A stretch of 64,000 nt of DNA from Diplocarpon mali (lineage: Eukaryota > Ascomycota > Leotiomycetes > Helotiales > Drepanopezizaceae): the NCBI GenBank assembly GCA_024741835.1, contig JAENRP010000081.1, forward strand, positions 101,533 to 165,532, read 5' to 3'. Position numbers and translations under genes: made by a program. The notes beneath the pieces are model-generated. The model was given only the letters and a program-made list of their open reading frames with translations, did no database searches and was not told the DNA's origin. Below, piece after piece: positions 13,592 through 26,323 of the stretch. Position 1 is the first letter of the stretch; each line of letters begins with the position of its first letter.

Positions 13592-15341
13592 TCAGCTCCT
13601 TTTTTCCCATTTTCCCACTCCCTTCGTGCCGCCTTCGGCTGGAAAAGCGGCTACCAAGCCCGTTCCGTCGCCGGCCACAACGACGGCCGTCCATCTCTGC
13701 TCGCGCCACGCGAATCTCCTCTCTCCCTCTCGATCACGGCCCAGGATCGGGCACTCATCCTTCAGCACCTCGATCAAGGTGCAGTACCCGACGCTCTTCT
13801 GATCCGACGGGCCGGCCTCCTCCTCCCTCCCGTACAGAGCCTCGGCATCCTCCCTCCTCCTCGGCATGTCATGCAAGAAGATGTGGAGATCCGGGAATTG
13901 CGAGAACACCTGTCCGAGAGCCGGTTTGGTCGGGGTAGCTGCGAAGATGGATTTCGGCGCTGAATGGTGGGCTTGTTGCCGTGATGAGTAGGAGGGTTGG
14001 GTGGCCGAGGGCGTCGTGGTGTTGTGGAGGACGGTGAGGATATTGCGGCTTTTGGCGAGGGTGTGAAGGGTTGAGGAGAGGAGTGTGAGGATGGCGTGTG
14101 CTGGGGTGCGTTAGCATCACATGGGTCATGAGGCGGGAGGCACAGGACGAGACGACGGACCTTCGCGCTTCTCCTTGCGGGCGAATAGCTCGTTGATGAT
14201 GTGCGTCAGGTTGTCTACGATAATGATCTCTGGGCCCGCTCCAGCCTCCTCGTCTCGAGCCGAGCTCGGGTTCGCGAGCTCGGGAGACATGGGGATCGTG
14301 GGTTCAGGAGTGAGATCTTCCTGGCTGTCGAGAATCTCTAGCTCGTCTCCCTGGACGCCAGAAGGCCTCATGGCCGGCGCAATCGCAGAATTCCCTCCCG
14401 AGGAAGTATCCTGGTCAATCTCCCCCAACACCTCCCAGAGTCCCTCGAAATCAAACACCCGGCTAATGGCTACCATCTCCAGGCATCTCTGCGCGTCTGC
14501 CCCGACCCTGATCCCGAAGCCTTCCTGCCCGGGCTCACTGACCGAGTGATGGCCATGTTCCACGGCGTTCCGAGCGGGTTGAGAACGAGTGGCGAGGATC
14601 CGGGACTTGAGGACGGACAGGAGGAGGGCGAGGGGAAAGGAGCCGGTCGTGTCTATGATGATCGCCTTAGTCGTGTTCTTTGTTGCGTCGGGCTGAGGGA
14701 GGAGAGCCGAAGCGATGAGGTTGAGGGATATCTAGGCTGGTGAGCTTGTTGACTTGTGACGAGTGAGCCCATCATGGTTCAGTTGCGGATGGACTGCGAC
14801 GACGAGCCTGGCGGAGGGCGGAAAGAATTGTGATCCTGGATGTCTCGGCAGCGGGAAAGCACCACGACATGCGCAAAGAAGCTTCAGATCGCCACTCGAC
14901 TTGGATCGCACCACCTCCACCTCGACGGAGTAGTCACGTGACGTTGGTTTTCCGGAGTCCATGCCGCCTTTCATCGTGCAAGAGGCCCACCCCCGAGCGC
15001 GATACTCATGCCAGAGAGGGATTGAGACAATCAACTCGCCAGAGAGGGATGAAGAGAATACTCATGCCAGAGAGGGATAAAGAGAATCAACTCACCAACC
15101 GGCCCTCCAAGGCCTCTGCACTCGAACTGAGGCCCAGCACCACGCCCCTCTCCACCCCTCCCCCCAGCAGCTCATCGATATTCTGGCAGCCCGTGCCCAG
15201 CCTCTCCGCGCCAGCCAGGCCGGTCAATTGCCTGCGCTGCGTCTCTTCCAGCTCGAGGAGATGCGAGGCCAGAATGGGCATGGCAGATTCCGGGGCCGAG
15301 GGGGGACGGGTGTGAGGCAGGTTGGGGTCGATGGGTATCAT
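13592..15341 (-). CDS. Rad51-paralogue-like RecA-fold ATPase (recombination or repair factor)
   Basis: Likely a RecA/Rad51-superfamily recombination factor acting with Rad51 in the nucleus. Exons are 15096-15341, 14161-14731 and 13592-14100, giving 441 aa. The N-terminal part contains LGTGCQNIDELLGGGVERG (49-67), the sequence that precedes Walker A in Rad51 paralogues. The expected P-loop position reads GLSSSAEALEGRL (70-82), so GKT is missing. Then follow AIIIDTTGSFPLALLLSVLKSR (beta-strand with the Rad51-like DTTGSF) and a good Walker B, EIIIVDNLT (Asp255). The C-terminal third includes LTVLHNTTTPS and the CTLIEVLKDECP stretch. The first intron (363 nt) is much longer than its neighbours and contains tandem repeats; a hidden small exon there is possible. 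Paralogue identity (Rad51D/XRCC2/Rad55-like) is not resolved. Confidence 0.72.
15007..15090. repeat. Tandem repeats in intron 1 of the Rad51-like gene
   Basis: CCAGAGAGGGAT occurs three times (about 15010, 15039, 15067), each followed by a variant of TGAGACAATCAACTC or AAGAGAATACTCATG. The repeat abuts the predicted donor site at 15095. Confidence 0.75.
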
Positions 15342-15855
15342 CCTTGCTGATTGGAAGTCGTCGTGTGATGGCAGACGTGGCTGAGAGGTGACGCAGGACG
15401 AGAGGACGACGAGCAGGGGTGAGCCGAGGATATCACCTTTCGGCGATGATGGTGTTGCGACGGGTGAGAGGCGTGGGAGGGGTGAGAGGCGTGAGGGGAG
15501 CGAGGGGAGCGAGAGGAGAGGATGGGATTCTCACCAGGTCGACAACGGCCGACCGTTGCGCGGCGAACCATCACCTGGCGTCTGGACTGAGATGGCTTGC
15601 CGGCCTGGAAACTCGAGCGCCGGTGAGAGGGGTTGTCGGCGTGAGGCCTCGCTCAGGGGGCACGACGAGGGGGATGGCATCGTGCTGCCTGCTTCCTGCC
15701 TGCTTCCCGTGACCAAGCGGGTTTCTCAGGTCCGAAAGGAAATCTCACGACATGGCTCCGAGCGTGACGGAGCATCCAACACATGCAGCGTAATCCCTTG
15801 TATGCCTCGTCTATCTCCTTGGGATTAGCCTCCTGGAGAGGGGGAGATGCAATAT

Positions 15856-15899
15856 CACGTGATAATTGCCGAGCCACGTGCCGTGTGTGTCAGCACGTG
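15856..15899. promoter_or_regulatory. Three CACGTG boxes spaced exactly 19 bp
   Basis: CACGTG begins at 15856, 15875 and 15894. The first is inside the longer palindrome ATCACGTGAT. E-boxes of this kind are bound by Cbf1-type bHLH factors in fungi. Binding here is inferred only from the sequence. Confidence 0.5.
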
Positions 15900-16659
15900 G
15901 AGCTTTCCCCCTCCCCCCTTGCCCGGCTCGGTCCCGCTGGAGCAGCGTCTCCGGAGTGGCCGAGTCTAGACCGGGCCGATGAGACCACCGTCCACAATCC
16001 TCGATCCATCCAGCAGAGCAAGGCCTCTCGGAAGGAGGAGGCATCCCACTCCACCCACTCCCCCCCATTCGAGCCTCCACGGCGATGATCCCTCGAGATG
16101 CGACGTGCAACAAGACCCGGCCCTCCTGGCAATCCCCCCACCCAGCCACGGCTCGTCTCCCGTGCAGCCTCGTGGGAGCGGCGGGATGGCGGCGGCGGGT
16201 GGCTCCAGATGGCGGATGGGAGATCTCGGGATGGGAGAGGCGGCAATCCCGACCCCCCCGTGAAAAGCGGTGAAGCGTCGATCACCGAGACTGCGACATG
16301 CAACAGAGCTGAAGATGCTCTCACTCACAAGTCGTCAATCCCGAGCCAGCCCAGCCGCCTACACGAGAGCGGAGGGCGGAGGGCGGAGGGCGGAAAGCCT
16401 GGCCCCACTTCACCTCCACCTCCGCTCGGGCTGCGGTCTGGAATGGTCCATCCCCCCCCCCTTCACCCCCCGTCCGAATGGGGCAAGCTCGAGTGATCCT
16501 CCTTTCTGCGACGTGCAACAGAGATTGCCTTCTCCGCGTCTCGCGGGTGTTCGGCTCTCCTGGTCTGGAGATCATGGCCTGGCACCTTGCATGGCGCTTT
16601 GGGGACGGTCTCGGCTCGCGGCTCGCGGCTCGGGCGCACTGTGGTAAGGTGGTCTCGTC

Positions 16660-16760
16660 ACTTGGCAGCTGGGCGATCACTGCGATGTGCATCAAAGGTC
16701 GGGCTCGCTGGTCAGCTGGTCAACTTGGCAGCTGGGCGATCGCTGCGATGTGCATCAAAG
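16660..16760. repeat. 63-bp tandem duplication carrying two motif copies
   Basis: The segment with CTTGGCAGCTGGGCGATC followed by the TGCGATGTGCATCAAAG form of the motif occurs twice; the two motifs start at 16681 and 16744, 63 bp apart. Only a few positions differ between the two halves. Confidence 0.85.
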
Positions 16761-18187
16761 AGCCCGGATGACTGGACGGACCCATGATTACCGAGAACTG
16801 TCCTCGGCCGGTGCCCAGATCTCCCACGGAGAAGACATGCACGAGGCCATAGACCGGTGGCGGGAGAGTCGGTGGCTCGGGTGCCGGCTGGCTGGCAGCC
16901 GCTCCCGTCAGATCCTCGCCTCCACCGGTGGAGATTGTTTCGTCTCGTCTCGTATGGTATCGTCTCGTATGGTATCGCATCGTCTCCGACACCCCCAAGG
17001 TCGTGGCAGACCTTGGCGATAGGCAACACCAGGTTGAACAGGAGACCCCTCTGCCGAGTATTGGCTGTTGGGAGCCATGCGGATGCTTCAGCTCGGTCGT
17101 GGGGCTTGGTGGCTGAAGCATGGCTGGGGATGCGGAGGCTCTGCTTGGCACGGCCGGCACCGTGATACACAACAGAATGGGACCTTTCTCAAGCCCCTAC
17201 ACGCCCTTGTGCCGCGGGGGGGGGAGGGACGAGGTAGGTGTGGCCCACCATTGTCACTCCCTATCGAGTTCGAGCTCGGTGAAGTGCAGGAGAGGGAAGT
17301 GATCGCAAGAGGGGCTGCTAGCGGGGATTTGTTTACTTACCGGAGAAGCGGAAGCGAGCCGGTCGTCGATGAGCTGGGCCGGCAAGAAGTTCGACCACTC
17401 GGGTCCTCGAGAGAACTCGGCGATGCAGTTCCTTCCGTGCCCAAGCGTGCAGATCTTGCGCGACATGCAACGAAGATGCCGCCGTGGGAGATCTGATTGG
17501 TATTGCACCGCGCCTAGAAATCGTCCGTCAGAGCTGGCGGTGGGGATCCCGGCGGTGGGGGACATGTGAGGACTGCGGGACCACTCTCCCCGACGCAGAT
17601 CTCCGTCCGATGTGCAACAAGAAGCTCCGCGACGCCCTCCCCCGGAGTTCTTGGACCGAGGACGTCGGATCTCCGACTGCCCGGCGGGAAAGTTGCTGGT
17701 GCGCACGGCCGCGCGTGAGATGGCATCCAGGACAGAGTTGCCGATCTCAGCCCCCCCTCTCAGCCCCCCCCCCAATGCTGGCTGGAACGCTCGACAATCT
17801 GGCGATCTGGCTGCGGCGTGCAACAAAAACACGGCGGGAATCATCCCCAGCGCCTGTCCAGACCGCACATGGCCATCTTCTGCCAGGCTCGAGACGGGCG
17901 GGGGCGGGATCGGTCGCTGAAACGCCGTCGCGGACGTGTGGCTTGAGCCCCCCCCCCCCCTTTTCCCCGCGCCATGCCGGATTGACAGGCCGTGGGATTG
18001 CGGAGAAGAGAATGAGACCTATCCAGTCCGGACAACGTCGCACAGTAATCGCAACCAGAGCAGCCGAAGCAGCTGGTCCCCACTCATTCGCGACCTGCAA
18101 CAGAAATCGTCCCGCGCCGTCGGGTGTAACGCTCGCGGTGGTGATGCCCGCGACGTGATCTGAGCCCGTGAGCCGCGTGCCACGCGA

Positions 18188-18256
18188 GCCGGCCGAGGGA
18201 GGGGACGAGGGGAGGGGACGAGTGGACGGGTGGACGAGTGGACGGGTGGACGAGTG
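18188..18256. repeat. G-rich tandem repeat (GGACGRGTGGACG-type)
   Basis: Units GAGGGGAGGGGAC and then GGACGGGTGGACGAGT repeat in order, all G-rich on the plus strand. Confidence 0.8.
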
Positions 18257-18367
18257 ATGTGGAAGATGCAGGCGCCCGCCGCACCCAGCATGCAGCCCCG
18301 GCATCGGCGCGGGCGCGGGCGCAGGTCAGAATTCTAGATGCATGGCCCCTCTGCGTGCGATGTGCAT

Positions 18368-18490
18368 CAAAAGGGAGAGGAGGAAGGAGGGAAAGAAGGG
18401 AGGAGGGAAGGAAGAAGGGAGGAGGGAAGGAAGAAGGGAGGAGGGAAGGAAGAAGGGAGGAGGGAAGCAAAGAAAGAAGGAAGGAAGGAG

Positions 18491-18525
<35 letters not shown>

Positions 18526-18600
18526 AGGAAAGAAGGAAAGAAGGAAGAAAGGAGAGAAGGAAGGAGAGAAGGAAAGAAAGAAGGAAGGAAAGAAAGAAAG
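18368..18600. repeat. Long polypurine tract, (GGAAGAAGGGAGGA)n then (GAAA)n
   Basis: About 230 nt almost purely A and G on the plus strand, starting with four near-identical 14-bp units and grading into GAAA/GAAG tetranucleotides. It begins immediately after one motif copy (18356). Such mirror-like polypurine DNA can form triplex structures. Confidence 0.95.
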
Positions 18601-19025
18601 CCCTCACCCCGCCGGGCGACCAGTCCCGACTCGGCGGCGGCTGGCACTGCTCTCCTCGGAGGCGGGACATACTCTCGAGGGTGTCGGCGAGTCGTATCCC
18701 CGGGTCATGTGCTCACGAAGCGTCGATATGCTTCTGGCACAGCTTCCGGCCTGAGACAGGCAAAGCGACTGATCTCGGGGCCCAACCCACTCTCCTGCAT
18801 GAGGAGTGCGATGTGCAACAAAACGAACCGATCGCATCTGCGCAGCCGAGTCGGGCTCACTTGCTGCCATTCTCCTCCCGGCTTGGCCTGGGTGCGGTCG
18901 GGGGGTTAAGGCAGGGTACGGCCCCGTCCCGTGCCTGGAGGACTCGTTCGGCTGAGGCACCTGATATCCAGCAGCTGGCCTGGCCCGGAGCCTTGCCATT
19001 GCGCCCGGCAGGGGAGCGTGACCGC

Positions 19026-19092
19026 ACTTTCAGACTCCCAGACTTTCAGACTCCCAGACTCCCAGACCCCCAGACCCCCAGACTCGAGAGTC
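19026..19092. repeat. Tandem (CAGACTCC/CAGACTTT/CAGACCCC) repeat
   Basis: Seven to eight short units beginning CAGAC are followed by an inverted TCTGGG, giving a potential hairpin at the array end. Confidence 0.85.
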
Positions 19093-19639
19093 TGGGCGAG
19101 AGGTGCGTCGTGCAACAGAAATGCGCGCTGCCCTCCGTCTCCTGCGCCGATCGGCCGGAAGAGGGGGGGGGGCTCCCTCGGCTACGTCCCACGGCCGAAG
19201 ACGAGGCCTGCTGGCATATTCTGGCCCGGGAGACGAGATGGGGCCGTTCCCCCATGGCGCAGCCCATTCCCTCCGGCACGCAGACCCGCCGCCCGGAGTC
19301 CCCGGTCGCGCCGGACCGAGGTCACGTTACGTCACATCACGTTATGTCACGTCACGAGTCTGGGCACCGGCGCGCGCGGGATGCGGCCGAGGTGGGAGGT
19401 CAGGCAACGTCGTCCCCCATGCTTCCCGAGGCGCTACCTGCCCTTCCGGACGGGGGGCTCCCAAGAAATTGGCATGGGCCGCGACGTGCAACAGGAATCC
19501 CGCTCGCCCGTTCGTGCTCCGCGGGGGCGGCGAGGGGGGGGCGACGAGGTTCGAGGGAGCCGGCGGCCGGCGGCTGCTCTGCCTCGACGAGCGAGGTCCA
19601 AGAGATTGGCATGAGGCATGGGGGGGGGGAGCGGGGGGG

Positions 19640-19880
19640 AATAGGCAACAGTACTAGGCAACAGTACTAGGCAACAGTACTAGGCAATAGGCAATAGGCA
19701 ATAGGCAATAGGCATCAGGTGTTAAGTACTAGGCAATTGGCATAGGCAATAAGCAATAAGCAATAGGTATTAGGCGTTTAGTACTAGGCATTCGGTACTA
19801 GGCATTAGGTACTAGGCAATAGGCATAGGCAATAGGCAATAGGCAATAGGCATTAGGCGTTCACTACTAGGCATTGTGTA
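19640..19880. repeat. Degenerate GGCAATA / TAGGCAACAGTAC array
   Basis: The array begins with three exact copies of a 13-bp unit (TAGGCAACAGTAC), then shorter GGCAATA units, then mixed forms with GGCATTA and GGTACTA. It is less GC-rich than its surroundings. Confidence 0.9.
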
Positions 19881-19881
19881 C

Positions 19882-19955
19882 GGCATTGGCACTCGCACTG
19901 GCACTGGCATTGGCATTATACTGGCATTGGCATTACACTGGCATTGGCATCGGCA
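19882..19955. repeat. GGCATT/GGCACT hexanucleotide array
   Basis: TGGCATTGGCATT units with ACTGGC variants run directly from the previous array and end at the motif copy starting at 19955. Confidence 0.85.
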
Positions 19956-20167
19956 TCGACGTGCGACAAAAGTCCGGCTTCTCGCAGAGTTGCCACTCCT
20001 ACCGCGGAGAGCCGCTTGGCACGCTGATGTGTCTCCAGAGGGCTTGGCAGCCGGAATCGCGCGGTGGCGCGGCCGTGTGGTCCCCTCGGCTTTGGCTGTG
20101 ATCCTCCGTGGCGGCGCTTGGCAACTGCGCCGCGGCAGATCACAACCGACCGGACAAAAAGGGCGCC

Positions 20168-20194
20168 AACCCTAACCCTAACCCTAACCCTAAC
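20168..20194 (-). repeat. Interstitial telomeric repeat, (AACCCT)4
   Basis: Four perfect AACCCT hexamers followed by AAC, i.e. TTAGGG repeats on the minus strand, the usual telomere repeat of filamentous ascomycetes. The block is internal, with complex sequence on both sides. Confidence 0.95.
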
Positions 20195-20635
20195 TCCGGC
20201 TCTCTCTTCGACCCCGGCACGTGTTGATCGATGCCCCGAGAGGGATGCACGTGACCTCGTCCATCCCGCCCCCATCTCCCGCCATGTCTCTCTGCGTGCC
20301 CGGGGCGCTGTCAGGTAAGGAAGACCAGCCGTGCGGGGAGGTGTAGAGCGACGAGAGCGAGGAGAAGCACCGGCCAGCAATGCCGGCTCCCTCGTCCTCC
20401 TTGGCCCGGAGCGCGACATGCAACAAAAGAACTCTTTCTGGACTTTGCCCTTCCCACCTTGGCTCACCTCGCCATCAATCCAGCCCCCTCCAAACCGACG
20501 ATCAGACGCGGCACGAGCAGCGGCAGCGGCAGCCAAGAAGGGTGCGACGTGCAACAGAAGTCTCGCACGTGGGGTCCGGCCTTTGCTTTTCTCGTGACAG
20601 CCGGCCGGTGGCGCCGAGGAGAGGAGAAGACGGAG

Positions 20636-20683
20636 GGGGAGGAGGAGGAGGAGGAGGAGGATCAGCAGCAGCAGCAGCAGAAA
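20636..20683. repeat. (GGA)n followed by (CAG)n microsatellites
   Basis: A GGA-rich trinucleotide run passes directly into a CAG run at about 20660-20683. Confidence 0.85.
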
Positions 20684-21390
20684 GAGACCAGGATCGATCT
20701 CCGGCGGACGGGGTGAGGGAGCGGGGCACGAGCACCGGAACAAGCTTCTGGGCGACATGGGCCGTACTACTCTTACTGTAGCGACGAGGGACCCGGGGCC
20801 TTGGCACGTGGATCCCCGTGAGATCTTCATCTTTTCTCTTTCGTTCCGTCTCGGTCTCGCCGTCTCTCTCCCCCCGACTCTTTCTCGGTCACGGGCTTGG
20901 AGGGCTGGGTTGGGTAGACGACGGTGTGCAGCGACCACACGAGTCTGATCGAGCCCAGGCACGGGACAGGCACGGGGACGATGGATCTGCAGGCCGCGAA
21001 GCTCCCTCCCTCCTCCTCCCATCCCTCGCGCTCCCACCACACATGGGGTAGAGCAGCAGCGGCAGCCGCATCACACCAGCAGCACAACAACAGCCGCACA
21101 ACAGCAGCAGCAGCAGCAACGACACCCACACCCAGGCGAGCAACAGCGGCCTTCTTTGAACTTCTGCCGTCGGTCTAGACAGCAGCCCGCCAAAAGCCCA
21201 CCCGCTCCATCCGCCCGCTCGGAGACGACACTCGGCCCGCCCCATCCCCGGACCCGGACCCCCGCGGGCTGCGCTTGGCCCGGCCTCCGACGTGCAACAG
21301 GAGCTGCCTCGGCCGAGGTCGATGGGCCCCCCAGCTGGCCAAGGTGAGGTGAGGGGAGTTGGGGGGGGGGACGGCACGGGTCAGGAACGG

Positions 21391-21440
21391 GACGGCACGG
21401 GACGGCACGGGACGGCACGGGACGGCACGGGACGGCACGG
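21391..21440. repeat. Perfect 10-bp tandem repeat (GACGGCACGG)5
   Basis: Five exact consecutive copies, with degenerate copies before (from about 21370) and after (to 21450). Confidence 0.95.
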
Positions 21441-21693
21441 GACGGTCGGATACGCCTCGGCTACCGGCTCTCGCTCGCCGGCCGAACTGACCCCGTACGA
21501 GAGGAGAGGCGCACCCCTTGCACAGCTGCTCCTGTCCACGGTAGATCCCCCTGAGAGGCCGGACTCCCGGCATCTGCTCGTGGGGTGAGCCCTGCGACGA
21601 GAGTACGCCGACGGAGGGGATCGAGAGCGCGGCTGCGGCGCTGGCGTTTGGAAGGGCGAGCGAGCGTAATGGTGGGTGTTTATGAATTGGGGA

Positions 21694-21743
21694 TGTGTAT
21701 ATGTGTATATGTGTATATGTGTATATGTGTATATGTGTATGTG

Positions 21744-21775
<32 letters not shown>

Positions 21776-21845
21776 TGTATGTATGTATGTATGTATGTAT
21801 GTATGTATGTATATATATACATACATACACATGTGTATACCACAC
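21694..21845. repeat. (GTATAT)n and (GTAT)n microsatellite
   Basis: GTGTATAT units pass into about 17 GTAT tetranucleotides and then a TATATACATAC inverted tail, so part of the array can fold back on itself. Confidence 0.95.
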
Positions 21846-22470
21846 AGATGTATGTTACACACCCAGTCAGATAACACACAAGCTGACCTCCAACTGCCTA
21901 TCGTACTGCAATTGTAAAAGCTATCGTAATACCTATCCTACTGCCCATCCTACTCCCTAATACCTATTGTACTCCCGTTGTAGTACATCTTCTAATACCT
22001 ACCCTACCGCCCATCCTACCGCCCACCTACCACCCATCCTAACCACCCATCGAGGTCTCGTCATACTGGGCGATGGCTGGCCCCGGTCTGCGACTACTCT
22101 GCGCGTCCGACCCCGATCCCAACTTCGGTATCGCCGGTCGTGGCAGAGGGCGTGTTCCGGAGCGATGAGGTGTTCTGTTCGACCCCCACCCCCACTCGGA
22201 TCCCACATGGCGACGCTGCGCTTGCCAGCAGCCAGGATCGCCGTCGGCGCGGGACTGCGTCGGGCTCACGACCCACGGCGCGCCCGTCCGAACCGACCCG
22301 GTCACGAGGCGCACCACGTGCGATCTCGCATCCCTGGTCCGGGAGCCAACTGCGAAGGATCCAAAAGTCCAAGAGCCTCTCGTCGAGGGAGAGGATCCTT
22401 ACCGCCGTGGCCATGCCGTCGCGTAGCCGTCGCCCGGAGTGGCAGACCTCTGTCGCGCGTTGCAATCTCC

Positions 22471-22533
22471 CCTTCCTTCTCCTCTCCCTCTTCTTCTTCC
22501 TCTTCTTCTTCTTCTCCCTCTCGAGCCTCGGCA
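22471..22533. repeat. (TTC)/(TC)n pyrimidine tract
   Basis: An almost pure C/T run on the plus strand, mostly CTTCTTC units. Confidence 0.85.
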
Positions 22534-22601
22534 GATGGCTATTTTTACACTCGCTTGTCTGCCTTGGAGAGGCTTTGTTGCACGTCGCAAAATGGGCTCT
22601 C

Positions 22602-22690
22602 AAAATAGGAGTCTGAAAATAGGAGTCTGAAAATAGGAGTCTGAAAATAGCAGCTGCTGGAAATAGTAGCCGCTGAAAATAGCCATCTCG
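22602..22690. repeat. 14-bp tandem repeat AAAATAGGAGTCTG
   Basis: Three exact copies (22602, 22616, 22630) followed by three decayed copies to about 22690. The array starts 12 bp after the only minus-strand copy of the dispersed motif. Confidence 0.9.
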
Positions 22691-24475
22691 AGATAGCTTC
22701 CCTTGCACCAGTGTCTTTACTAGAGCGCCTCGGGGGAAAAGCTCTCCATCGCGGCCAACCAGCTGCACGGCGTTGGCAATTCGACGGCGAAGAGGAACAA
22801 AAAAACACCATGCGCGTTCTGTCCAGCCGGCGTCGTGGGACATCTCGTGGGGACCTGGCGACCGGCGCAGTCAAGCGAGCCTCTCGAAGCTTTCTCTCCG
22901 TATGCTGTTCCGGTCCCCATCCCCCCCCCCGGTGGCATGTCCTCTTACGGGCAGCGCGGTATCAGCATCGACCTCCCATTCATGAGCAGAGTGATATCCT
23001 TCCTCCTCATGCCGTCGTTGATGTTTTTCCAACCCCAGCACCACTCCCGTGGTTGGAATTTCAAGTCCGGTGGATCGCAACCAGGGCGGAGATCCACCGG
23101 GAAAAAAGTATGAATTCCGACCATCCGGAATAGCAGACGAAGTCGTGGAAAGTGTGCTTCACGCTTCTGATTAAGAGAAGGCTTCCAACCTCAGGAAAGC
23201 GCCAAAACGGGGTCACTCTAGATTGTTTGGAAAGATCTCGAGTACAGTAGCTCGCGCACCAGACAATTCTCGAGCCATCCGACTCTTAGCATCCGTACTC
23301 TGACTTACTCTTCTGAAGTATATCCAGGGGTGGGGAGTTGATCCACTCTGCTCGAAAAAGGAAAAGAGAAGCAGGAGTGTAGCGTGCTTCCAGTGACCCC
23401 GATCGGATCTCCGCCTTTTCCCATGCGCTTGACGATGATATCGACGATATCCGCGCTGCAGCAGCACAGAGCAGCGCCCAGGGGCGAAGCAATCTGCCGG
23501 CGGAGAACTCAACGACAAGTATTGATGCTCACTCAGCAATGGAGCCTAAGTTGTTGAGTTGGGATGCATCGCCAGGATCTCTCCGAGCAGGATAGATGGG
23601 CGGTTCATCAAGACTACGCGGGAAGAACTGCAACAAGCACGCCAAACGTTCCACCGCCACGCAACTACGGCGACACCAATCATCGAATCACCCCACGCGA
23701 AAAGGGGGAGCGAGACAAACATCCCGACCAAAATAAAAACCACCAGACCACCAAGCAAACCCAAAATCACGACACGGGGAGTATGGCTTCGGGTGCCGTC
23801 TCACGTAGAGCAGCTCGCTTACCTCCCACGATCTAGGCCATGCCGTCGCCCTCTCCTCCCGACAACCTTCCGGTGCCTAGACCATCGCGCCGACGCGCAA
23901 CAAAACACCCACCAACCCCCCTCGTCCGTTGCCCTTCCCACAATTACGACCCCGCGGCCGGCTCTGGACTCTCGACCGCGACGTGCAACAAAACACCCCC
24001 TTCTCGTGTACTCCAAACGGCCCGAGTCATGGATTGCACGAAGGACAGGTAGAAACCAGTCTCCGGCCCGACCAGACCAGACCAGACCTGCTGCTTGGCG
24101 TGTCGAGGAGTCTGGTACACGCGGAGAAGCGCTGTCGAGTCTGGACTCTGGCTTGCTACATGCAACAAAACAACGGAAGCAGGACCACAGCCACCAAGCC
24201 AATCTCGAGCGGCGACGCATCCTCACATCACGCAGAACCCTCCCCTCCCATCGAAGCGCCGAGCCTTTGCAGCGCTCCTGATTGACCGTCTCTTCCCCAG
24301 TCCCCCCCCGGCTCGCAACTCTCCTTGCAGACACACCGAGTACAGCACAGCAGACCCGTCTGTCGATGATCCGCAGCACCCGTTCCCCATCTCCGGAGGG
24401 AGAAAGGGCTCGCCTCACGTAAAGTGCGTGACGGGAGAGAGGAGGCAGCACCGTGCGGGGATGGGGGACGGAGAA

Positions 24476-24533
24476 AGAAGAAGATGAAGAAGATGAAGAA
24501 GAAGAAGAAGAAGAAGAAGAAGAAGAAAAGAGC
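24476..24533. repeat. (GAA)n microsatellite
   Basis: GAAGAAGAT units pass into pure GAA. It encodes artificial Glu or Lys runs on the plus strand and Phe/Leu runs on the minus strand. Confidence 0.95.
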
Positions 24534-25149
24534 CTCGCCGGGAGGTGCGTCGAAAGGCAGGGGAGGCAGGATGTCGTGCATCTCCCCGCGGGAGCCGGGT
24601 CCAGACTATCTGAAGACGTGCAACAGGAAGACATCCTTGCCGGACGGCGACGACCCAACTCCTCCCCGTGGTGCGGATGGGGGAAGCTCTGCCTGCCCCT
24701 CTGCAGAGCGCTTGCCAGGCCACCGCGCCTAGCATTGGGACTCGACAGCTCCCGTTGTGCTCCGCGGCCTCGAGGGAGTTCGTTCTTCTCCAGCCTGCGG
24801 GTCGATCGAGCCGGTCTCCTCGGCGGCGAGGGTGCGTGGCTGTCGCACCCGTCTCGCTCTCGCCCTGGCTCGACTCTTCTTGAGACGGGACGCGTCGACT
24901 CCCCCCTCTGTCTGCTCGCTCGCGAGATCCCGTTGATGCACCACACCACACCCCCCAAGCCGTACAGCCCCACACCTCCATCTACGACTCCCTCAGCCCG
25001 TCCTGCTAGGCCTCACTCGACGACGAGGTTCTAGGACGAAGTATCCCGGAGAGCACCCTCCCACCCGCCGCCACCCGTTGGCTGACGGCGTAGGCCGCAA
25101 CACGCAGAGCTACTACCGGCCGCGGGAGAATGATTCTATGTAAATTTAA

Positions 25150-25214
25150 CATATATACATACATACATACATACATACATACATACATACATACATACAT
25201 ACACATATACACAT
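25150..25214. repeat. (CATA)n microsatellite ending at an assembly gap
   Basis: About a dozen CATA units followed by CACATATACACAT and then ten N at 25215-25224. The gap was probably caused by this repeat. Confidence 0.95.
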
Positions 25215-25224
25215 NNNNNNNNNN

Positions 25225-26323
25225 CCCACCGCGTTCGTGTGCATGCTCTCTGCCTCCATGCCGAGAAGGCAGCTTATCGGGTCTGGAATGATTGAGAGGG
25301 AAACTGCAGGCGGAGCTCGCGAGATCGCTGCGACCGTATCGTTCACTCGAGAGGAGGGATGGAGGTTGAGGAGAGAAACGGGAAGAAGAAAAAGACTACA
25401 TCGAAGGCAACCATGACCTTCACATGAGCCTACTACACGGAATATGAGCCTGGTACTTGATCGTTTCGCTACCAAGTATCCAAGAGTCCGAGCCAACCGG
25501 GTCGAGGAGGGCTAGCATGGTAAACTTCGAGTCCACTCGGCCCGAGAGCCAGTCGGGTTGGCATCCTCCCTGTATACATGACGATAATCAACCATGAGCT
25601 GGATCACATCCTTGCGGGTGGGGTGATGCAAGGATAGTCGGTAGCCAGCCCGTCCACCTTCGAGAGGCATGAGGACGATGCCGACAAAAGCCAGACTTGC
25701 AGATCAGCTGGTCGAGGGCCCCGAGATGCAGTAGAGCCCAAGGAAAAATGGAAAGCGACCAACGGTATCAGCAGCATACAAGTACCATCGAGCACGCAAA
25801 TATCGAGCGGAAGACGATCGTCGTTGCATTTTTGCCTCCATATCTCACAACAGAGCTCCTCGTCGCTGCTTGCACACCATCTGGTATATCAAACCCTCCC
25901 TGCTCACCCCTTCAACGTACTGCACCATGAAAAGAAACGATCGCAAATACAATAAAAGCAGTGGTCCATCCTGCGCCTGCACCACTCCGATTGCGTGAAG
26001 AAGGATCGGTTGTCATACTACAAACCTGCGGGGAAAGGACTTATTCCTTCTCCAAGTCCTGCACGGCCTGCAAATTCTTCTCATCTTTCTGGGGGAAAAA
26101 AAAAAAAAAAAAACACACCACGGTCAATCGACGCGAGTAAAACCTTGGGCTAGAATCTCCGTGCCCATCCCGCCTGTGCTATCCAAGGGGGAAAGAGCCG
26201 AGAAAGTATCCAGAAGCAGAATGACAAGATAAGCCGTACGTAAAGAGGGTACACACGCTCCGTCGCCGTGGGACCCCCGGTTCATGCATTTCGGAAATTC
26301 TCTGCTTTCCCAGGCAGTTCAGC
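25225..26323. other. Intergenic region downstream of PAL1
   Basis: No gene supported. It contains a poly-A run (about 26096-26113) and the 3' flank of PAL1. Confidence 0.55.

What the first reader, a model, noticed from the sequence alone, without database searches (positions are those of the whole stretch)
16099..24628. Undescribed 17-bp motif dispersed 22 times across a gene-free 8.5-kb island, almost all in one orientation
Copies near TGCGAYRTGCAACARAA recur every 60-1300 bp; 21 are on the plus strand and one on the minus strand. The core is kept while the intervening DNA is unrelated, so this is not a simple tandem array. I noticed no good copy elsewhere in the window. Copies fall in different frames, which excludes a coding repeat. 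A DNA-binding site array, a replication or chromosome-structure element, a small-RNA target, or the footprint of a tiny mobile element are all possible.
Basis: seen in the sequence. Interest (0 to 1): 0.86.

Follow-up and report, generated by a model that had tools for sequence, protein, structure and literature searches.

The report
Recurring DNA box in fungal arrays
An apple-blotch fungus carries one short DNA word again and again, in small one-way arrays and as single sites between genes, as if an unknown DNA-binding protein, perhaps its relative of the human centromere protein CENP-B, recognises it.

Summary
In detail: 22 copies near TGCGAYRTGCAACARAA lie in 16099-24628 (21 plus, 1 minus), against 0.74 expected. 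It is not unique to this window. The genome matches Diplocarpon coronariae. It holds 134 exact CGAYRTGCAACA cores versus 8 for the reversed control: 76 in 25 clusters, 58 alone; 44 of 51 neighbouring pairs share a strand. The commonest words shared by clusters are all pieces of the box; flanking genes differ. Some clusters are decayed tandem arrays with locus-specific flanks. I found no RNA fold, splice-signal, coding or mobile-element signature. The few reversed copies keep the consensus equally well, which favours double-stranded DNA recognition.

Best reading: a protein-binding box multiplied by local duplication and kept while its surroundings decay, as CENP-B boxes are in unrelated satellites. 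Its reverse complement matches the human CENP-B box at 11 of 17 positions (p 0.0065 full length; only 0.12 with free offset). The genome search found one CENP-B-type DNA-binding gene, without a transposase domain. That this protein binds the box is a testable guess; function remains inferred.

The parts
16099..16115 (+). box copy
   Evidence: 26.4 bits
16292..16308 (+). box copy
   Evidence: 25.3 bits
16507..16523 (+). box copy
   Evidence: 26.4 bits
16681..16697 (+). box copy (TGCATCA variant)
   Evidence: 23.4 bits
16744..16760 (+). box copy (TGCATCA variant), local duplicate of 16681
   Evidence: 23.4 bits
17459..17475 (+). box copy
   Evidence: 19.7 bits
17606..17622 (+). box copy
   Evidence: 22.0 bits
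17812..17828 (+). box copy
   Evidence: 24.1 bits
18089..18105 (+). box copy
   Evidence: 21.1 bits
18356..18372 (+). box copy (TGCATCA variant)
   Evidence: 24.7 bits
18807..18823 (+). box copy, exact consensus
   Evidence: 28.8 bits
19104..19120 (+). box copy
   Evidence: 22.0 bits
19480..19496 (+). box copy
   Evidence: 23.2 bits
19955..19971 (+). box copy, weak
   Evidence: 16.5 bits
20412..20428 (+). box copy
   Evidence: 25.8 bits
20543..20559 (+). box copy, exact consensus
   Evidence: 27.7 bits
21286..21302 (+). box copy
   Evidence: 20.9 bits
22573..22589 (-). box copy, the only reversed one in the island
   Evidence: 27.6 bits
23889..23905 (+). box copy, weak
   Evidence: 17.8 bits
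23977..23993 (+). box copy
   Evidence: 26.9 bits
24154..24170 (+). box copy
   Evidence: 22.4 bits
24612..24628 (+). box copy, weakest (4 mismatches)
   Evidence: 14.7 bits
15500..26300 (.). non-coding, GC-rich, microsatellite-rich island that holds the array (tandem-repeat fraction 0.160 in 15500-25500 against 0.016 in the rest of the window)

Best explanation
The motif is a protein-binding box in double-stranded DNA (core CGAYRTGCAACA, full site about 15-17 bp). Shown: it recurs genome-wide in one-way local arrays and as solitary, mostly non-coding sites; it is the only sequence seen to be shared between loci as a rule; it persists where flanking sequence has diverged; some arrays are decayed tandem duplications. 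Inferred: local tandem duplication multiplies the box, a sequence-specific protein that acts on clustered sites selects for its retention, and the one-way orientation is mostly inherited from tandem duplication. Inferred and weaker: the best single candidate for the binder is the one CENP-B-type DNA-binding protein found in this genome (B2J93_2252), used off the kinetochore as an array-binding, fork-stabilising or chromatin-organising factor, as fission-yeast CENP-B homologues are at LTRs. I put about 0.25-0.3 on that particular protein and the rest on some other DNA-binding protein.
For: Excess and clustering: 134 exact cores against 8 reversed-control hits; 51 neighbour pairs within 2 kb against 0.75 expected for random placement. 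Solitary sites are real: positions outside the search core are also conserved (A at position 15 in 41 of 51 sites, p 1.6e-16), and 41 of the 48 loci L033-L080 have their core outside called coding segments. In 21 oriented cluster regions the 25 commonest non-simple words at each of k = 9, 10, 11 and 12 are all pieces of the box. Between clusters, flank positions agree at 0.24-0.30, the ten fixed core positions at 0.89-0.98 (the core figure is partly by construction, since sites were picked by score). Reversed copies within arrays score like the majority (7 copies mean 23.4 bits; 102 copies mean 23.8; p 0.89), as dsDNA recognition predicts. Clusters are not promoter-like: of 11 loci with a gene called on both sides, 4 lie between convergent genes, 7 between tandem genes, none between divergent genes (my reading). 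CENP-B lead: 11/17 identity at zero offset, p 0.0065, matrix version 0.0015; lowest p of 16 known motifs compared. The one PF03221 gene found encodes a 560-aa protein with both CENP-B HTH domains and no DDE domain listed; best PDB match human CENP-B DNA-binding domain, 1hlv, E 5.3e-8 by sequence and E 1.1e-4 by fold, the only fold hit at E<=0.001. S. pombe CENP-B homologues bind LTRs and stabilise forks there (PMC7175516, passages).
Confidence: 0.55

Rival explanations
1. RNA-level element: arrays are long non-coding RNAs and the box is a single-stranded binding site (protein or small RNA), as with the repeated DSR motif of fission-yeast meiRNA.
For: One-way orientation (44 of 51 neighbours; 21 of 22 in the window). 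Most common variants are transitions, which G-U pairing to an RNA would tolerate. AT skew downstream of clusters +0.050, s.e. 0.010. The longest meiRNA-L carries 25 core and augmenting motifs (PMC3352096, passages).
Against: Reversed copies are as well conserved. No consensus fold in 8 clusters. Intron-like signals 24 sense against 21 antisense; a stricter model gave 1 against 8, all 8 in one simple repeat. Rfam: in the island 21 sub-threshold matches, 20 of them on simple repeats; one sub-threshold match in 5 cluster loci; none in 40 further loci. Address-like flanks of two arrays have no near copy or complement elsewhere beyond about chance.
Confidence: 0.2
2. Polar replication-fork barrier or terminator array: a directional protein roadblock like RTS1/Rtf1, Sal boxes or Sap1 sites, whose stalling also explains local duplications and microsatellites. 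This is a special case of a DNA-bound box, set apart because the orientation would be functional.
For: Several copies in one orientation over 0.1-2 kb resembles RTS1 region B, about 450 bp with four repeats that bind Rtf1 (PMC10473836, passages). Tandem-repeat fraction within 400 bp of sites is 0.020-0.058, falling to 0.010-0.017 at 1.6-3.2 kb (window excluded). The box reads as a heptamer direct repeat TGCRAYR-TGCAACA, and Sap1 at Ter1 is proposed to bind direct repeats (PMC6053445, passages).
Against: No clear upstream/downstream polarity of tandem repeats. Repeats are commoner in non-coding DNA anyway, so the enrichment is confounded; 10 of 20 clusters have no more of them than their surroundings. 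58 of 134 exact-core sites stand alone.
Confidence: 0.15
3. Neutral relics: decayed minisatellites or footprints of a tiny mobile element, with no present function.
For: Some clusters are tandem arrays; the island is rich in micro- and minisatellites.
Against: The same box in otherwise unrelated arrays and in solitary sites is not expected from independent neutral arrays. The core is found where flanks are unrelated. No shared ends seen.
Confidence: 0.1

Closest known systems
[quoted passage not shown] CENP-B-box-like motifs in Meloidogyne satellites, PMC3694981 and PMC9673304, passages seen)
   Same: 17-bp box conserved while the surrounding repeats are unrelated; 11 of 17 letters of the reverse complement agree with YTTCGTTGGAARCGGGA; the genome encodes a protein with a CENP-B-type DNA-binding domain.
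   Different: Arrays are small and dispersed, not long satellites; 4 of 9 positions recalled as essential differ; centromere position not shown; binding not shown; similarity not significant if the offset is free.
RTS1 / Rtf1 polar replication fork barrier of fission yeast (PMC10473836, passages)
   Same: Several copies of one motif within less than 2 kb.
   Different: RTS1 is one locus bound by a Myb protein; here dozens of loci, binder unknown, polarity untested.
C. elegans pairing-centre motifs (HIM-8/ZIM; PMC9071541, passages)
   Same: A short motif enriched in clusters.
   Different: Those are 12-base motifs at particular chromosome ends, bound by C2H2 proteins; here one common box at many loci.
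meiRNA / DSR motif arrays bound by Mmi1 (PMC3352096, passages)
   Same: Many copies in a non-coding locus.
   Different: A 6-nt RNA motif; here about 15-17 bp with well-kept reversed copies and no evidence of transcription.

Membership tests
CENP-B box / CENP-B system | 17-bp box conserved among otherwise unrelated repeats | tested here: met
   core shared, flanks unrelated between loci
CENP-B box / CENP-B system | sequence of the box, YTTCGTTGGAARCGGGA (printed in PMC9673304), with its essential bases (list of 9 recalled) | tested here: inconclusive
   11 of 17, 5 of 9 essential; p 0.0065 full-length zero offset, 0.014 offset up to 3, matrix version 0.0015; p 0.12 with free offset, lowest p of 16 motifs, score tied with one
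CENP-B box / CENP-B system | a protein with the two-HTH CENP-B DNA-binding domain in the same genome | tested here: met
   B2J93_2252, 560 aa, best match 1hlv
CENP-B box / CENP-B system | that protein binds this box | not testable with these tools
   needs DAP-seq, EMSA or ChIP-seq
CENP-B box / CENP-B system | location in centromeric satellite | not tested
   676 unordered contigs; the window cluster lies among ordinary genes
RTS1-type polar fork barrier | multiple motif copies in one orientation | tested here: met
   for most but not all clusters
RTS1-type polar fork barrier | orientation-dependent fork arrest by a Myb protein | not testable with these tools
   experiment needed
lncRNA/DSR-type RNA motif array | functional copies all in the transcript sense | tested here: inconclusive
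   44 of 51 neighbours concordant but reversed copies equally conserved
lncRNA/DSR-type RNA motif array | locus is transcribed | not testable with these tools
   no RNA-seq; no splice-signal bias
Mobile element or transposon end | element body, ends or flanks shared between loci beyond the core | tested here: not met
   22 between-locus hits; the one family traced is a common dispersed repeat, the others were not traced, and distances to the box vary
Tandem minisatellite | head-to-tail units alignable beyond the box | tested here: inconclusive
   met in L020, L028, L029 and, by flank sharing, L012, L019, L022; not met in the window array as a whole
Coding repeat | copies in one frame of an ORF with protein support | tested here: not met
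   spacings not all multiples of 3; no Pfam match in 10 island ORFs

The most novel reading that the evidence does not exclude
Each array is a bipartite address: a locus-specific stretch of about 25 bp plus the universal box, repeated several times. Together the arrays form a set of locus-identity sites (for homologue pairing, looping or locus-specific silencing) read by a domesticated CENP-B-type protein plus locus-specific partners. This would be a new class of chromosome-addressing element in filamentous fungi.
Probability: 0.1. Interest if true: 0.9.

Novelty: new variant of a known kind. Interest (0 to 1): 0.6.

Why it matters
A box kept in dozens of otherwise unrelated places suggests that something in the cell reads it. 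Filamentous fungi carry a conserved CENP-B-type protein without a transposase domain; I did not find its binding site in the searches made here, which were not exhaustive. If it reads this box, its role and the question of why CENP-B-like boxes recur in unrelated repeats become testable in a small genome. If another protein reads it, a new genome-wide element with its own binder is still to be named.

Tried and rejected
RNA structure: RNAalifold on 8 clusters gave no conserved helix. Spliced lncRNA: intron-like signals 24 sense, 21 antisense; stricter model 1 against 8, all 8 in one L012 simple repeat. Rfam: island 21 sub-threshold matches, 20 on simple repeats and one weak gabT; one sub-threshold miRNA match in 5 cluster loci; none at gathering score in 40 loci, L033-L072 (L029-L032 and L073-L080 were not searched). 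Trans-acting guide complementary to the locus-specific flank: L020 address found only in its own array (3 of 3 hits); L028 address 7 of 11 hits in its own array, the other 4 each with 3 mismatches, control 2; only these two addresses were tried. A strict upstream/downstream asymmetry of the shared flank looked strong in pooled data but by cluster is only 15 up against 8 down, with 3 ties; I keep it as a lead only. One dispersed repeat near several clusters proved common, with at least 40 scored copies. Spacing peaks near 100 and 190 bp: post hoc, p 0.04 and 0.01. Tandem-repeat enrichment near sites shows no clear polarity. YpR-only degeneracy at positions 5-6 (146 of 158) is biased by how loci were chosen; in the window alone I count 21 of 22. 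A Rad51-like reading of the 14126-14731 ORF from memory found no PDB or Pfam support. The VIA list shows no further family of note beyond common HTH folds. Literature: three searches for such motif arrays or a TGCAACA binding site and one for literal core strings listed no paper that by its title describes this element; one search found 43 papers, listed 20, and I opened only PMC3694981, PMC9673304, PMC9569828, PMC11266386, PMC10473836, PMC7864672, PMC3352096, PMC9071541, PMC7175516, PMC6053445 and PMC5368702 from other searches, as passages, none of the 43.
Full report
What was checked. The 17-bp motif TGCGAYRTGCAACARAA was searched in the window with up to 3 mismatches: 21 island hits and one outside, against a shuffle mean of 0.74 and maximum of 3. 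A position weight matrix finds the 22nd copy at 24612 and scores the copies at 14.7-28.8 bits; simulated sequence gives 0.08 hits of 14 bits or more per 10 kb. Copies are 21 plus and 1 minus, 63-1316 bp apart.

Where it is. A window protein is 99% identical to one from Diplocarpon coronariae and 88% to D. rosae. The genome held is 49.4 Mb in 676 contigs. The island runs from about 15.5 to 26.3 kb between a conserved minus-strand ORF (14126-14731; 46 homologues, no Pfam) and a Pal1 gene on the minus strand. Ten of the island's ORFs were scanned and have no Pfam match. No tRNA was found in the window.

Genome-wide. The exact core CGAYRTGCAACA occurs 62 + 23 + 49 = 134 times, against 6 + 2 + 0 = 8 for the pattern read backwards. 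Strands balance, 67 and 67. 76 sites fall in 25 clusters within 2 kb and 58 stand alone; 51 neighbour pairs lie within 2 kb where 0.75 are expected; 44 of 51 pairs share a strand.

Anatomy. I fetched 20 cluster loci of about 10 kb, 12 further stretches of 1.6 kb, both smaller clusters and solitary sites, and 40 of about 1 kb, one of them 2.4 kb. All were chosen because they hold the core, so they do not test core conservation independently. The 20 clusters span 0.1-2.1 kb with 2-7 copies; the window spans 8.5 kb. In 21 oriented regions the 25 commonest non-simple words of 9, 10, 11 and 12 bases are all pieces of the box. Within a cluster, positions -25 to -1 upstream of the core are often shared (pooled identity 0.33-0.54 against 0.24-0.30 between clusters). 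By cluster this is clear in L010, L012, L013, L019, L020, L022 and L028; L021 and L027 (one pair each) share downstream instead; the window, L009, L011, L014, L015, L018, L023-L026, L030, L032 and L038 share little or nothing. L020 and L028 are decayed tandem arrays with units near 185 and 105 bp, L029 one of 106 bp. L031 has copies in both orientations with a similar upstream stretch. The flanks of L020 and L028 do not recur elsewhere beyond about chance, and the L028 array is single-copy.

Solitary sites. Of 51 exact cores in 50 loci (L004, L006, L033-L080; one of them, L066, holds a pair), 41 have A at position 15 and 36 have G at position 1, positions not used in the search (p 1.6e-16 and 3.4e-10). 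A codon-usage scan places the core in coding sequence in 7 of the 48 loci L033-L080; the scan is crude and also calls short false segments in non-coding controls. Sites in coding and non-coding loci do not differ significantly in how complete the box is (3 of 8 against 23 of 43, p 0.47).

DNA or RNA. For DNA: the 7 minority-strand copies inside clusters score like the 102 majority copies, and there is no conserved RNA fold in 8 clusters, no splice bias and no Rfam match of note. For RNA or a directional function: the strand agreement persists in arrays without flank similarity, the window above all, and AT skew is slightly positive downstream. I rank DNA first. The site reads as a heptamer direct repeat, TGCRAYR then TGCAACA, the second half nearly invariant; the central YR step takes all four transition forms, which follow local GC content (r 0.25 and 0.38).

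Not promoter-like. Ten neighbouring ORFs were scanned; six have Pfam matches, all different (HSF, aldehyde dehydrogenase, KTI12, ankyrin, bZIP and triose-phosphate transporter types) and four have none. Reading by eye, of 11 loci with a gene called on both sides, 4 are convergent, 7 tandem and 0 divergent.

What it most likely is. A protein-binding box in double-stranded DNA, multiplied by local tandem duplication and kept by selection while its surroundings decay. It works like a CENP-B box in that one box is kept in unrelated repeats; whether it is one is open. Function is inferred, not shown.

Noticed in passing
window 20170-20193: Four perfect interstitial telomere-type repeats (CCCTAA) inside the array; two more units in L017 at 3410, near another cluster.
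   Followed up: no
window 15500-25500: The island is dense in micro- and minisatellites (39 TRF rows in 15000-25500; tandem-repeat fraction 0.160 against 0.016 in the rest of the window).
   Followed up: partly
window 14126-14731, minus: Conserved ORF of unknown function, 46 homologues, no Pfam or PDB match.
   Followed up: partly
L081:99-2050 (C16:223400-225700): CENP-B-type gene B2J93_2252 without a listed transposase domain, its first HTH domain split by an intron; relatives in many filamentous fungi.
   Followed up: yes
L010:8088-8553 and relatives: Common dispersed repeat, at least 40 scored copies, the other 39 at 75-80% identity, present near several clusters but at varying distance.
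   Followed up: partly
L031:387-1059: A cluster with five copies in both orientations (387 +, 458 -, 742 -, 950 +, 1043 -) that share part of the upstream stretch, unlike most one-way arrays.
   Followed up: no
window 22596-22683: CTGAAAATAG minisatellite next to the only reversed box copy; the upstream stretch of the L028 array also contains GAAAATAG.
   Followed up: no
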